From Brucella haematophila (lineage in GTDB: Bacteria; Pseudomonadota; Alphaproteobacteria; Rhizobiales; Rhizobiaceae), in NCBI RefSeq assembly GCF_005938105.1, contig NZ_VCPE01000001.1:310001-374000 (forward strand): a stretch of 64,000 bases of DNA, in the 5' to 3' direction. Positions 6,820 to 30,691 of this stretch are shown here, piece after piece. The translations under genes were made by a program, and so were the position numbers. Each line of letters starts with the position of its first letter. Position 1 is the stretch's first letter. The notes under the pieces are model-generated. The model made no database searches. It saw nothing but the letters and a program-made list of their open reading frames with translations, and was not told the origin of the DNA.

Positions 6820-6936
6820 GAAAAAGCCCGTCGCGCTGGGAGGAGGAGTGCGCAACGGGCTGATTGGTAAAGCGCGATTGGGAGGAGGAGTATCGCGCTT
6901 CGTGTCCGGTTTCTGGGAGGAGGAGTGAAACCGAAC
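6820..6936 (-). ncRNA. alpha-r14 family (NfeR1-type) trans-acting small RNA, copy 1
   Basis: On the minus strand three consecutive hairpins each present CTCCTCCTCCC in the loop (plus-strand positions 6915-6925, 6880-6890, 6838-6848). Stem 2 is a perfect 9-bp AAGCGCGAT/ATCGCGCTT pair. Stem 3 (GCCCGT...ACGGGC) is followed by five T and acts as the intrinsic terminator. This architecture, with anti-Shine-Dalgarno loops, is that of the alpha-r14 RNAs of Rhizobiales such as NfeR1, which repress translation of transporter genes. The length is ~117 nt. The 5' end is placed from the promoter at 6944-6972. A second copy lies at 30406-30529. Confidence 0.87.
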
Positions 6937-6943
6937 AATGTGA

Positions 6944-6972
6944 AAATAGGTGCGGAGTCAGGTGTTTACAAG
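6944..6972 (-). promoter_or_regulatory. Promoter of the alpha-r14 small RNA, copy 1
   Basis: Reading the minus strand there is CTTGTA, a 17-bp spacer and CTATTT, a good match to the alphaproteobacterial CTTGAC/CTATAT housekeeping promoter. It predicts a G start at about 6936. The second copy has the same arrangement (ATTGTA, 17 bp, CTATTT), which supports both calls. Confidence 0.68.
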
Positions 6973-7030
6973 GGAACATCCTGCAGGGCAGCTATGCAAA
7001 TTTTGAAGGGCTAAGTACCTGGTCCAAAAG

Positions 7031-7137
7031 TCGCCATGCCGGTCTGCAAATGGCAATTTCTGCGCTTCCGGTGCTCACGTACCCAAATGTACGCTCCGCT
7101 CCGGTTCTCGAAATCACCATTTTCGCCGCGGCCTGTC
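7031..7137 (-). repeat. Bru-RS-like palindromic intergenic repeat, copy A
   Basis: About 107 bp that align, in opposite orientation, with the repeat at 39025-39171. Shared blocks include TCCGGTGCTCACGTACC, then ATGTACGCTCCGCTCCGGT, then CTCGAAA and TTTCGCC. The core is an imperfect palindrome (GGAGC ... GTAC ... GTAC ... GCACC). Brucella genomes carry many such ~105-bp elements (Bru-RS1/2). It sits between the two small RNA genes of this locus. Confidence 0.7.
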
Positions 7138-7155
7138 GCTTTTTGATTCAGGGCT

Positions 7156-7240
7156 AAAAAAAGAAACCGCCCCGCAGCGGTCTAGCGCGCTGGGGCGGTC
7201 ACTCCCTCCTCCAAGTGGAGCACACAATAATGAGGGAGTT
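7156..7240 (-). ncRNA. Candidate companion small RNA with intrinsic terminator, copy 1
   Basis: The minus strand shows a 5' hairpin with stem ACTCCCTC/GAGGGAGT (7201-7208 with 7232-7239). It is followed at once by a strong GC-rich terminator, ACCGCCCC ... GGGGCGGT, with tail TTTCTTTTTTT (7156-7199). No gene precedes this terminator on that strand, so it most likely ends a short non-coding transcript of ~85 nt. The same two-hairpin order occurs at 30608-30691, next to the second alpha-r14 gene. I do not recognise the family and the promoter is unclear. Confidence 0.5.
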
Positions 7241-7294
7241 TCCAAAAGCAAGCCCCTAACAAAACTCTATAAATTTCAGAAAATACTGAAATCT

Positions 7295-7417
7295 ATGAAG
7301 CTAATTGAGCAGATGGCATATGTTCTGCGGATGGCTGGCCTTGTCTCGACTGAGTTGCCGGAAGTTCACGCCAGGATCATGACTGCATACGCAGCAAAAC
7401 ACCTGCCTAATATTTGA
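7295..7417 (+). CDS. Possible small protein (40 aa)
   Basis: An open frame from ATG 7295 encodes 40 residues beginning MKLIEQMAYVLRMAG and ending KHLPNI. The composition (alternating hydrophobic and charged residues) looks protein-like. However, there is no good ribosome binding site and the start lies in AT-rich intergenic DNA. It may be chance. Nothing in it points to a function. Confidence 0.25.
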   Translation: MKLIEQMAYVLRMAGLVSTELPEVHARIMTAYAAKHLPNI

Positions 7418-8308
7418 TATAATTTGTAGACTACCTAATTGTTGCGAGGGCGCGTGGAATGGTCGGGGCTATGCAAGGCGGGTGACAGTTGTGAATTTCG
7501 GTCGCGGTCGCCCCGTTTTTTGCAATTGCCATTTCCATTTTGGAACAGGTGTGATTATGTGCGGTCGCACGAGCCAAAGGAATCAATGCTCGGATTTCTA
7601 TCGTCCGATATGCCTTTGCAGGTGAATTTTAGACGGCTCTTTAAAAAACTGCCGTTGGGATCGGGTTTCAAAAAACCCCTGTGATCTCGGATATTTAGTC
7701 GGGAAATCACCCCAATTAATTGGGTGAATTATCTGGTTTGATCACGCAATCTTTCACGCTGGAACCCTTTGTTGGTTTTAGAATCGGTCTTTACCCGCCA
7801 TTTTTTCCCTGCGTGCACTCCTGAGAGCTCGCCCGCCTCGCGCCCCTAAGCCCCCCGCCCAAACGCGAGGCGGTTCCTTGTTTAGGAACCACTGATTTTT
7901 CCCCGAAAATACAACTAAGCACTATTGCCGGAATCAGTTGGCTTTGTTCCGCCTCTTTGCCGTTGCGATGCGCGCGGCCTCGGTTTTGGATAAAAACCAC
8001 GGTCACGTTTTAAGACTTAACGCAGCGTCAGATTTGATTGGGATTTAAGCGTAAATCTGAAGCGCTTTCTTCTGTGGAAGACGCCGAATAGCCCGGCTGA
8101 CGCCCTATTCTTCGGGTACGTTTGAAGCAGTTGAGTCGATTGGCGCTTGAAGCGCACCACGGCTTTGAATGCATGCAGCATCGGGTCCGGCTTCATGCTT
8201 GCGCGTCTTCGCCTCTATTGAGGGCGCGCATGGGCAGGACGCCAGCCAAAAATTAACCATCTGTTAACCATTCCGCATATAGATCGAGTAAACCGTTTTT
8301 TAACCAAG
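7418..8308. other. Long gene-free region upstream of minC
   Basis: I see no supported gene in these ~890 bases. Small inverted repeats are present: GGGTTT/AAACCC at 7663-7678 and GGTTCCT/AGGAACC at 7872-7890. The last 60 bases are rich in TTAACCA-like steps and probably include the minC promoter. An open frame at 7439-7684 has poor composition and no ribosome binding site, and I do not call it. Confidence 0.4.
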
Positions 8309-29108: not shown

Positions 29109-29149
29109 AGCGGTTTTGGCGGACATGCCGAAGCCGCTCTTTGTTTTTG
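29109..29149 (+). terminator. Intrinsic terminator after the sugar ABC operon
   Basis: AGCGGTTTTGGC pairs with GCCGAAGCCGCT (two G-T wobbles) around a GGACAT loop, followed by TTTGTTTTT. It separates the transporter operon from anmK. Confidence 0.78.
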
Positions 29150-29230
29150 TTCGGGCATTTATCTGGTATTTCCTTTTAACGCCGAATTGCACTAACACTT
29201 TCTCTGAAATCCAGGAATGTGGAGGGTTTT

Positions 29231-30346
29231 ATGCAGCCAATCTGGGCCGTAGGTCTGATGACCGGCACTGTTCTCGATGGAAATATCGACGTCGCGCTGT
29301 TGAAAACCGATGGCGAAACAGTTGATATATTCGGTACTTACGCGCTGAAGCCTTATCCGGATGGTATACTTGCACTTTTGCAACAGGCGCAGGCCGAGGC
29401 GCGGGTCTGGAATTTCGAAGGCCCGGAACCCGCGATTTTTGCCGAGGCGGAAGATGCCTTGACGCGGGCGCAATCTGCCGCCGTGCGCGAGCTGGTGGAA
29501 GAAAGCGGTCTCATCATGGCCGATATTGGCGTTGTCGGCTTTCATGGCCAGACGGTGCTGCACCGCGCCCCGCAGCAAGGACGGCTTGGCGATACGCGCC
29601 AACTTGGCGATGGCGCGCTGATGAGCGAGCTGCTTGGCACCAAGGTCGTCTATGATTTTCGAACCGCCGACATTCGCGCTGGCGGGCAGGGTGCACCGCT
29701 GGCTGCAATCTATCATGCGGCTTTGCTGCGCAGCGCCGATTCCAGCGGCGATACGGCCATTCTCAATCTCGGCGGTGTCGGCAATATTACATGGTGGGAT
29801 GGCGACGACACGCTGGTCGCTTTCGATACCGGCCCGGCCAATGCGCCGATCAATGATTTCATGAAGGCACGCGGTCTGGGCGAGATGGATCGTGACGGTG
29901 CGCTGGCCGCTCGCGGCCATGTGGATGAGGCGCGCCTCGCCAAGCTGCTTGAGCATCCCTATATGACAGCGCCTTTTCCAAAATCGCTCGACCGGTTTGA
30001 TTTTACCGCCGCAATGGCTGACGGTCTCAGCGACGAGGATGGCGCGGCGACGCTCACAGCCTTCACCACGTCGGCTGTGGCAAAGGCGCTCGACATTCTG
30101 CCCCATCGCCCGAAGCGCTTGGCCGTGTCCGGTGGCGGGCGTCATAACCCGACGATGATGCGAATGCTGGTCGAGCGTGCGGGTGTCGAGCTTGTGCCGG
30201 TCGAGACCCTGGGCTGGCGTGGCGATGCCGTCGAGGCGGAGTGCTTTGCGTTTCTCGCTGTGCGCGCATTGCGCGGTTTGCCGATCAGCTTTCCAAGCAC
30301 CACGGGCGTGCCCGCGCCGATGACCGGCGGAACGATCGGGGGCTGA
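29231..30346 (+). CDS. anmK: Anhydro-N-acetylmuramic acid kinase
   Basis: The 371-residue ASKHA-fold kinase has the N-terminal phosphate loop GLMTGTVLDGNIDVALL (family form GxMSGTSxDGxD). VVGFHGQTVLHRAP, LNLGGVGNITWW and DTGPANAPINDFM follow in the standard order, and the C-terminal LAVSGGGRHNPTMM binds ATP. It converts anhydroMurNAc from wall recycling to MurNAc-6-phosphate. GGAGGG lies 4 bp before the ATG at 29231, so the upstream GTG is not used. Its proximity to the sugar operon might be functional, but a terminator lies between them. Confidence 0.92.
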   Translation: MQPIWAVGLMTGTVLDGNIDVALLKTDGETVDIFGTYALKPYPDGILALLQQAQAEARVWNFEGPEPAIFAEAEDALTRAQSAAVRELVEESGLIMADIGVVGFHGQTVLHRAPQQGRLGDTRQLGDGALMSELLGTKVVYDFRTADIRAGGQGAPLAAIYHAALLRSADSSGDTAILNLGGVGNITWWDGDDTLVAFDTGPANAPINDFMKARGLGEMDRDGALAARGHVDEARLAKLLEHPYMTAPFPKSLDRFDFTAAMADGLSDEDGAATLTAFTTSAVAKALDILPHRPKRLAVSGGGRHNPTMMRMLVERAGVELVPVETLGWRGDAVEAECFAFLAVRALRGLPISFPSTTGVPAPMTGGTIGG

Positions 30347-30405
30347 AACGGCTCGCGTCAACGATCAGTTTTTGAAGAGCGGTCTGTAAAAGGGAAATCT
30401 GGATA

Positions 30406-30529
30406 GCAAAACGCCCGCAGCAATTTGGGAGGAGGAGAAGTTGCTGCGGGCGGATTGGTAAAGCGCGATTGGGAGGAGGAGGAGTATCGCGCTTCAGGTT
30501 CGGTTTTTGGGAGGAGGAGTAAAACCGAA
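30406..30529 (-). ncRNA. alpha-r14 family (NfeR1-type) trans-acting small RNA, copy 2
   Basis: It has the same plan as the RNA at 6820-6936. Three minus-strand hairpins hold CTCCTCCTCCC loops (plus positions 30508-30518, 30471-30481, 30427-30437). Stem 1 is a perfect 10-bp GTTCGGTTTT/AAAACCGAAC. Stem 2 is identical to copy 1 (AAGCGCGAT/ATCGCGCTT). Stem 3 is a perfect 11-bp GCCCGCAGCAA/TTGCTGCGGGC followed by GTTTT. The linker TACCAATC between hairpins 2 and 3 is also shared. The stems have diverged with compensating changes while the loops are unchanged, which is strong evidence of a functional RNA. Confidence 0.87.
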
Positions 30530-30536
30530 CAACTGC

Positions 30537-30565
30537 AAAATAGAGCCGTGGGCTGATCGTTACAA
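30537..30565 (-). promoter_or_regulatory. Promoter of the alpha-r14 small RNA, copy 2
   Basis: The minus strand shows ATTGTA, 17 bp and CTATTT, the same elements and spacing as copy 1. It predicts a G start near 30529, which begins the first hairpin just as in copy 1. Confidence 0.68.
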
Positions 30566-30607
30566 TGACCGATCCTGCAACCGAGATATGCGTATTTTGC
30601 AAGGCCC

Positions 30608-30691
30608 TAAAACTAAACCGCCCCAGCCGCGAATAAACGCGCTAGGGCGGTGAATCTCCGCCAAAGCCCCCAATGGCGAGACGCGAGATTA
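30608..30691 (-). ncRNA. Candidate companion small RNA with intrinsic terminator, copy 2
   Basis: On the minus strand a hairpin with outer stem AATCTC/GAGATT (30653-30658 with 30685-30690) and inner CGCC/GGCG precedes a terminator. The terminator is ACCGCCC ... GGGCGGT with tail TTTAGTTTT (30608-30651). Order, length (~84 nt) and terminator stem match the candidate at 7156-7240. A possible promoter lies just upstream (GTTTAC, 16 bp, CTATTA). Two copies in the same position relative to alpha-r14 genes make a real transcript likely; its family is not recognised. Confidence 0.5.

What the first reader, a model, noticed from the sequence alone, without database searches (positions are those of the whole stretch)
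6820..30691. Duplicated two-gene small RNA module on the same strand, 23.5 kb apart
Seen directly: at 7240-6820 and again at 30691-30406 (minus strand) a ~85-nt candidate RNA is followed by an alpha-r14-type RNA with three CTCCTCCTCCC loops. The candidate RNA has a 5' hairpin and an ACCGCCC...GGGCGGT terminator. Loops, linker and promoter spacing are kept while stems have changed on both sides, as expected for selection on structure. The alpha-r14 member is a known type; a fixed partner RNA duplicated with it is, as far as I know, not described.
Basis: partly seen in the sequence, partly recalled or inferred. Interest (0 to 1): 0.8.

Follow-up and report, generated by a model that had tools for sequence, protein, structure and literature searches.

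The report
Decoy-like RNA paired with ar14
Next to two copies of a known bacterial small RNA that blocks ribosome-binding sites sits a very short second RNA gene that carries the matching sequence, so it probably soaks up the first RNA, and one copy appears to be switched by a regulator of respiration.

Summary
The duplicated module is real. Both downstream RNAs are Rfam ar14 (NfeR1 family). The partner genes look real too, but the copy 1 partner was drawn wrongly: the left arm of its "5' hairpin" lies upstream of a conserved -10 box. Copy 1 (type I) is predicted to be about 60 nt: a nearly invariant 5' ACUUGGAGGAG plus a terminator. Copy 2 (type II) is a hairpin with a conserved UUGGGGGCUU loop plus a similar terminator. 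Four partner classes occur in 32 of 35 genomes of the genus (57 genes); 55 of 57 have an Rfam-confirmed ar14 directly downstream. Type I was not found convincingly in other genera, where ar14 is common. The cores can pair with ar14's CUCCUCCC loops, types II and IV less clearly. The type I promoter carries an 18-bp box whose only other occurrences in the genus are before a GbsR-type regulator gene next to cydD (33 of 35 genomes); it matches the published footprint of CydE, the cytochrome bd regulator. Best reading: genus-specific sponge RNAs for anti-Shine-Dalgarno sRNAs, type I under CydE. Transcription, binding and function are untested. CrfA in Caulobacter is a published sponge of another such family, so the principle is known.

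The parts
7274..7291 (-). Predicted CydE box TTTCAGTATTTTCTGAAA, about -58 to -75 from the predicted type I start
   Evidence: published footprint in PMC6096048 (passages)
7246..7251 (-). Predicted -35 (TTGCTT) of the type I partner
   Evidence: mean identity 1.00 in 28 loci; 16-nt spacer
7224..7229 (-). Predicted -10 (TATTGT) of the type I partner
   Evidence: mean identity 0.98 in 28 loci
7157..7217 (-). Type I partner RNA (copy 1), predicted about 60 nt
   Evidence: promoter spacing, conservation and terminator; no transcript data
7206..7216 (-). Core ACUUGGAGGAG, complementary to ar14 loops
   Evidence: mean identity 0.99 against about 0.5 on both sides
7166..7199 (-). Terminator stem-loop of the type I partner
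7034..7135 (.). Dispersed repeat inside the 143-nt insertion that separates partner and ar14 in this genome
6985..6997 (-). VtlR/LsrB-like box GCAT-N3-TG-N3-T upstream of ar14 copy 1
   Evidence: motif from PMC7486931 (passages)
6943..6971 (-). Predicted ar14 copy 1 promoter, TTGTAA - 17 nt - TATTTT
6821..6943 (-). ar14 (RF02344) copy 1; predicted start near 6936
   Evidence: 93.2 bits
30751..30770 (-). Conserved block upstream of type II (GTTGCCGTTTTGACATAGTG); regulator unknown
30689..30694 (-). Predicted -10 (TATTAA) of the type II partner
30610..30682 (-). Type II partner RNA (copy 2), predicted about 73 nt
   Evidence: no transcript data
30664..30673 (-). Loop UUGGGGGCUU of the type II hairpin
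   Evidence: exact in 13 of 16 distinct sequences while stems differ
30617..30651 (-). Terminator of the type II partner
30579..30591 (-). VtlR/LsrB-like box of ar14 copy 2 (TC in place of TG)
30537..30565 (-). Predicted ar14 copy 2 promoter, TTGTAA - 17 nt - TATTTT
30406..30534 (-). ar14 (RF02344) copy 2
   Evidence: 70.1 bits

Best explanation
The partner is a very small trans-acting RNA that works as a sponge (target mimic) for ar14 and probably for other anti-Shine-Dalgarno sRNAs such as AbcR1/2. Shown by sequence: gene architecture, conservation, adjacency to ar14, complementarity of the cores to ar14 loops, and a CydE-type box at the type I promoter. Inferred: its Shine-Dalgarno-like core, at the 5' end (types I, III) or in a hairpin (type II, possibly IV), forms a kissing or loop duplex with the CUCCUCCC loops of ar14 and keeps ar14 off the ribosome-binding sites of its mRNA targets. 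The classes have different upstream sequences, so different signals could relieve ar14 repression. Type I is probably controlled by the CydE/GbsR-type regulator of the cytochrome bd operon, ar14 by VtlR/LsrB. Whether CydE activates or represses type I is not known.
For: Type I core 0.99 identical in 28 loci while neighbouring segments are about 0.5. 55 of 57 partner genes have a Rfam-confirmed ar14 downstream, first loop mostly 120-160 nt away, 196-282 nt in four. Simple duplexes: types I and III beat composition-matched shuffles (median fraction of 300 shuffles as good 0.003). With the cost of opening both RNAs counted, the window's type I pairs GGAGGAGG with CCUCCUCC at -11.9 kcal/mol in all five ar14 copies of this genome, equalled by 0-2 of 25 shuffles; type II gives -5.9 to -8.9, equalled by 0-1 of 25. 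For four type I variants the duplex with the loops of ar14 copy 1 (-15.1 to -23.9) is better than with the 16S tail (-11.2 to -13.9). Box TTTCAGTAWTTTCTGAAA: 56 sites in 35 genomes, 33 before the GbsR-type gene and 23 at type I, 0 for the reversed control (8 of the 23 placed by coordinates and the alignment). cydD-like sequence lies within 1.5 kb at 16 of 16 regulator loci tested. TTTCAG-N6-CTGAAA stands exactly before 10 of 12 homologous regulator genes (60% identity or more) of other genera, and with one mismatch before an eleventh. It matches the CydE footprint TATTTCAGAAATTTCTGAAAGTTCA (PMC6096048). Precedent: CrfA sponges SisA-D (PMC12559287).
Against: No transcript or binding data. Types II and IV do not beat shuffles in the simple duplex test (medians 0.40 and 0.15). 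Nested co-folding gives no more binding than shuffles, and for type II less, although it cannot represent loop-loop contacts. AbcR RNAs pair about as well as ar14. Longest complementary runs with 16S rRNA, G-U allowed, are nearly as long as with ar14 for types I, III and IV, so a ribosome decoy is not excluded. In the completed type I RNA part of the core is predicted to pair with the U tail (core unpaired 0.16 to 0.62 in three variants). One type I (G004) and one type II (G028) have no ar14 beside them. A box at about -66 is an unusual place for a repressor, which CydE is in the published case.
Confidence: 0.55

Rival explanations
1. General aSD antagonist or ribosome decoy: the core binds all anti-Shine-Dalgarno sequences (AbcR1/2, other sRNAs, 16S rRNA tail), and ar14 is only a neighbour.
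For: The two AbcR RNAs pair almost as well as ar14 (-11.9 and -9.2 kcal/mol with type I); 16S runs of 7-9 nt for types I, III and IV.
Against: 16S duplexes are weaker; 55 of 57 genes sit beside ar14, which a general decoy does not need.
Confidence: 0.2
2. cis element: the region is a leader or attenuator whose terminator and core tune read-through into ar14, perhaps with ar14 loops acting on the nascent leader.
For: Nearly constant distance to ar14; core-U-tail pairing in the consensus fold.
Against: ar14 has its own conserved promoter and VtlR-like box between terminator and RNA; in this genome a 143-nt insertion separates the two; a solo type I keeps its core without ar14 (G004).
Confidence: 0.12
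3. Ordinary sRNA with its own mRNA targets (C-rich sites), duplicated with ar14 through linkage.
For: Types II and IV show no excess complementarity in the simple test; the type II loop UUGGGGGCUU is conserved beyond what ar14 pairing needs.
Against: Four classes with different cores all keep some complementarity to ar14 loops and nearly all stay beside ar14.
Confidence: 0.1
4. No transcript: only terminators or repeats.
For: No expression data; GC-rich terminators are easy to find.
Against: Conserved -35, -10, regulator box and core in 29 genomes, with unconserved spacers between them.
Confidence: 0.03

Closest known systems
ar14 / NfeR1 (RF02344; the name Smr14C2 is recalled)
   Same: The downstream RNA of both modules: three hairpins with CUCCUCCC loops, VtlR/LsrB-like box, sigma70-type promoter
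   Different: The partner is a separate RNA with the complementary sequence; it is not a member
CrfA sponge of SisA-D (alpha-r8), Caulobacter crescentus
   Same: sRNA whose G/A-rich loop pairs with the aSD motif shared by a sibling sRNA family and inactivates it
   Different: CrfA acts on alpha-r8 with Hfq and is induced by carbon starvation, and the parts I read do not place it next to its targets; here the RNA is about 60-75 nt, sits directly upstream of ar14, has several classes, and one carries a CydE box
CydE, GbsR-type regulator of cytochrome bd (Alishewanella)
   Same: Same box sequence, upstream of a GbsR-type regulator gene next to cyd genes
   Different: No small-RNA target is mentioned in the passages I read; here the box also stands at a predicted sRNA promoter
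Cuckoo RNAs / CIN1 loci (DUF1127 gene + CcsR-like RNAs; PMC10253847 passages)
   Same: aSD hairpin RNAs in a fixed pair
   Different: The fixed companion there is a DUF1127 protein gene; the window modules have a small RNA instead

Membership tests
ar14 (RF02344), window 6943-6821 and 30534-30406 | Covariance-model score over the gathering cut-off | tested here: met
   93.2 and 70.1 bits against 58.8
ar14 (RF02344), window 6943-6821 and 30534-30406 | Three hairpins each with a CCUCCUCCC loop | tested here: met
ar14 (RF02344), window 6943-6821 and 30534-30406 | Hfq-independent transcript of about 115-123 nt | not testable with these tools
   described for NfeR1 (PMC10746234 and PMC8844928 passages)
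Partner RNA as ar14 or another Rfam family | Rfam model match over its cut-off | tested here: not met
   no family reaches its cut-off at 7000-7350 or 30540-30800; four sub-threshold matches at the first
sRNA sponge (CrfA-like) | Own promoter and terminator | tested here: met
   by sequence conservation only
sRNA sponge (CrfA-like) | Complementarity to the seed shared by the target sRNA family | tested here: met
   types I and III clearly; types II and IV not better than shuffles in the simple test, type II better with opening energies
sRNA sponge (CrfA-like) | Lowers level or activity of the target sRNA in vivo | not testable with these tools
   no expression data
CydE regulon (type I) | Box matching the CydE footprint | tested here: met
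   26 of 29 type I loci exact for TTTCAG-N6-CTGAAA, 3 with one mismatch
CydE regulon (type I) | Binding by the regulator and change of expression | not testable with these tools
   none
Cuckoo / CIN1 locus | DUF1127 gene directly upstream of the aSD RNA | tested here: not met
   tblastn with the genome's own DUF1127 protein finds nothing in the window better than E 0.70, none of it near the modules; such a gene is at the C34 copy and, by eye, at the C45 copy

The most novel reading that the evidence does not exclude
A genus-specific family of signal-specific sponge RNAs: at least four classes of very small RNAs with different upstream sequences, each encoded directly upstream of a copy of its own target (ar14/NfeR1), and each exposing a Shine-Dalgarno-like core that captures anti-Shine-Dalgarno sRNAs. 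One class is, besides the regulator's own gene, the only recurrent predicted target of the cytochrome bd regulator CydE in the genus, linking respiration to the VtlR/LsrB-controlled sRNA network.
Probability: 0.45. Interest if true: 0.78.

Novelty: new variant of a known kind. Interest (0 to 1): 0.62.

Why it matters
NfeR1 (ar14) and AbcR sRNAs repress many nutrient-uptake genes in Rhizobiales, but how their action is switched off is little known. A dedicated decoy, inherited together with its target and split into classes with different promoters, would explain how repression by aSD sRNAs is relieved by separate signals. It would also give a small testable circuit: one regulator with an experimentally defined box, one 60-nt RNA and one family of targets.

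Tried and rejected
A coding function was not supported: the six ORFs of 20 aa or more over 7100-7300 are short or on the other strand and, by eye, do not follow the conserved blocks. VtlR/LsrB as owner of the TTTCAG-N6-CTGAAA box was considered and dropped: the printed VtlR box is GCAT-N3-TG-N3-T, and that one fits the ar14 promoters. Nested co-folding gave no support; I judged it unsuitable for loop-loop contacts and used duplex plus opening energy instead. The automatic consensus fold of type II did not show the hairpin because the two subgroups were misaligned; single folds were used. The weak type I hit in G407 was read: a terminator without the core. The hit in G272 covers model positions 29-71 only and was not read. 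In 30 ar14 loci of other genera (the best-scoring ones) a G motif occurred upstream in 3 of 30 (L101, L105, L109), by eye not a partner gene.

Limits: outside the genus only the type I model was searched (394 family genomes, 12 candidates scored per genome), not the model of all classes; the exact type I pattern over genome contigs gave 22 records, 20 titled Brucella or Ochrobactrum and 2 'Rhizobiales bacterium' whose contig lengths equal contigs of G029 and G027. In one search my pattern caught 41 distinct partner sequences, 38 with ar14, and missed several type II variants; one search used a wider pattern over one locus for each of the 57 matches, and searches checked the same 47 loci against Rfam (55 ar14). 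ar14 counts are lower bounds, since at most 72 candidates were scored per genome. Shuffle numbers are small (300, 60, 25). The regulator was found in 24 of 111 family genomes, so it is not general in the family. Paper searches cover open-licence PMC papers only; the cuckoo family paper was not held.
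Full report
What is in the window. Both downstream RNAs are ar14 (RF02344): 6943-6821 at 93.2 bits and 30534-30406 at 70.1 bits. The window lies in a 5.5-Mb genome with five ar14 copies. Its genus holds 35 genomes here; the 22 named records that share the type I pattern are titled Brucella or Ochrobactrum (20) or Rhizobiales bacterium (2). Between the two ar14 copies 6 of 31 stem pairs changed on both sides and 1 on one side, all still pairing. ar14 is the NfeR1 family: a 123-nt Hfq-independent RNA with three anti-Shine-Dalgarno loops, activated by LsrB (PMC10746234, passages).

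The partner. A search with copy 1 found it in 29 of 35 genomes of the genus. Mean block identities over 28 aligned loci (G004 left out of this count because it lacks ar14): 0.35 in the 100 nt before the box, 0.95 in the box, 0.60 between box and -35, 1.00 in the -35, 0.50 in the spacer, 0.98 in the -10, 0.48 between -10 and core, 0.99 in the core ACTTGGAGGAG, 0.50 between core and terminator, 0.92 in the terminator. The -35 to -10 spacer is 16 nt in the 24 of 29 loci that a pattern matched; the 5 unmatched loci are the window's and its four nearest, where the base before the -35 differs, and in the window itself the coordinates also give 16.

Copy 2 is a paralogue. Its hairpin keeps the loop UUGGGGGCUU exactly in 13 of 16 distinct sequences, while the stems differ widely and still fold. 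Types I and II lie on the same strand 23.3-23.5 kb apart in 5 genomes and back to back, divergent, within about 0.5 kb in 10 genomes (coordinates). A covariance model of the classes known by then finds 57 partner genes in 32 of 35 genomes, and none in G009, G017 and G032, which keep ar14. They are 29 type I, 18 type II, 7 class III (cores such as CUCUUGGGAGGA) and 3 class IV (ACUCUUGGGAGGGAGUU). The 47 loci that hold them contain 55 ar14 over Rfam's cut-off, one downstream of each partner except G004 (type I) and G028 (type II). ar14 has at least 183 matches in the 35 genomes (sum of the match column, recounted), so most ar14 copies stand without a partner. Outside the genus, ar14 is common (194 of 199 genomes of a family sample that includes four of the genus), but the type I model gave only two weak hits there among 394 family genomes, and 30 ar14 loci of other genera showed no partner by eye.

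Pairing. The type I core contains GGAGGAG, the reverse complement of CUCCUCC; class III UGGGAGGA matches UCCUCCCA. In the simple duplex test types I (22 sequences) and III (7) beat shuffles (median fraction of shuffles as good 0.003 for both), types II (6) and IV (3) do not (0.40 and 0.15). With opening energies, type I of the window reaches -11.9 kcal/mol with each of the five ar14 copies (0-2 of 25 shuffles as good) and type II -5.9 to -8.9 (0-1 of 25); two AbcR RNAs pair similarly (-11.9 and -9.2 with type I, with 1 and 5 of 25 shuffles as good). Nested co-folding showed no excess over shuffles. The 16S tail pairs less well than ar14 loops in duplex energy, though contiguous runs are nearly as long for types I, III and IV.

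The regulator. TTTCAGTAWTTTCTGAAA has 56 sites in the 35 genomes (23 genomes two, 10 one, 2 none) and none for the reversed control. Sequence checks of 48 sites gave 15 at type I and 33 before a GbsR/MarR-type gene; the other 8 lie at type I loci by coordinates and in the alignment. With any six letters in the middle this genome has a third site, and the reversed control one. The regulator gene (L051 1545-2126) has a MarR_2 domain and a match to CudC far below that model's cut-off; cydD-like sequence lies within 1.5 kb at 16 of 16 regulator loci of the genus tested and at 10 of 12 of other genera. In other genera the box TTTCAG-N6-CTGAAA precedes 10 of 12 homologues of 60% identity or more exactly, an eleventh with one mismatch, and was not seen before one. 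PMC6096048 (passages) reports CydE, a GbsR-type repressor of cytochrome bd, with two footprints, one of them TATTTCAGAAATTTCTGAAAGTTCA. Type I is thus the only other recurrent place of this box in the genus. Its position, about -66, leaves open whether CydE activates or represses. The ar14 promoters carry boxes close to the printed VtlR motif: exact at copy 1, one letter off at copy 2.

Reading. The simplest account is a sponge: CydE and other signals set the level of partner RNAs, VtlR/LsrB sets ar14, and the partner keeps ar14 and perhaps AbcR off ribosome-binding sites. CrfA, which sponges the aSD sRNAs SisA-D in Caulobacter (PMC12559287: abstract, section 7 and one passage read), shows that such a mechanism exists. 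New here would be a partner encoded directly beside its target, several classes with different upstream sequences, and the CydE link. None of the nine paper searches that bore on it listed a description of this partner. I saw listings of those searches and passages or sections of eight papers, not whole texts, and subscription papers are mostly not held.

Noticed in passing
window 7034-7135: About 100-bp repeat that splits partner and ar14 here. 34 plasmid records match some part of 6800-7600; of the 20 listed, 19 match this repeat (Sphingobium, Shinella, Agrobacterium, Phyllobacterium and others) and one the ar14 part. The name Bru-RS is recalled, from no call.
   Followed up: partly
window 30751-30770: Conserved block GTTGCCGTTTTGACATAGTG upstream of type II, probably a site of another regulator; classes III and IV have different upstream sequences.
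   Followed up: no
L004 1251-1394 and L001: Two other ar14 copies of this genome follow a DUF1127 gene (the second seen by eye), as in cuckoo/CIN1 loci.
   Followed up: partly
L033 (G004) and L043 (G028): Solo partners: type I and type II with no ar14 downstream; the second lies near a tRNA gene.
   Followed up: partly
L050 1501-1518: A third TTTCAG-N6-CTGAAA site in this genome, between two ORFs that look like repB and repC (by eye); the reversed control pattern also has one site, so probably chance.
   Followed up: partly
window 7157-7216: In the completed type I RNA the core is predicted to pair partly with the U tail, whose single C is nearly invariant; a protein binding the tail could free the core.
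   Followed up: no
L041 645-852 and L042 2320-2531: Cobalamin riboswitch within about 1 kb of the type II module in two genomes.
   Followed up: no
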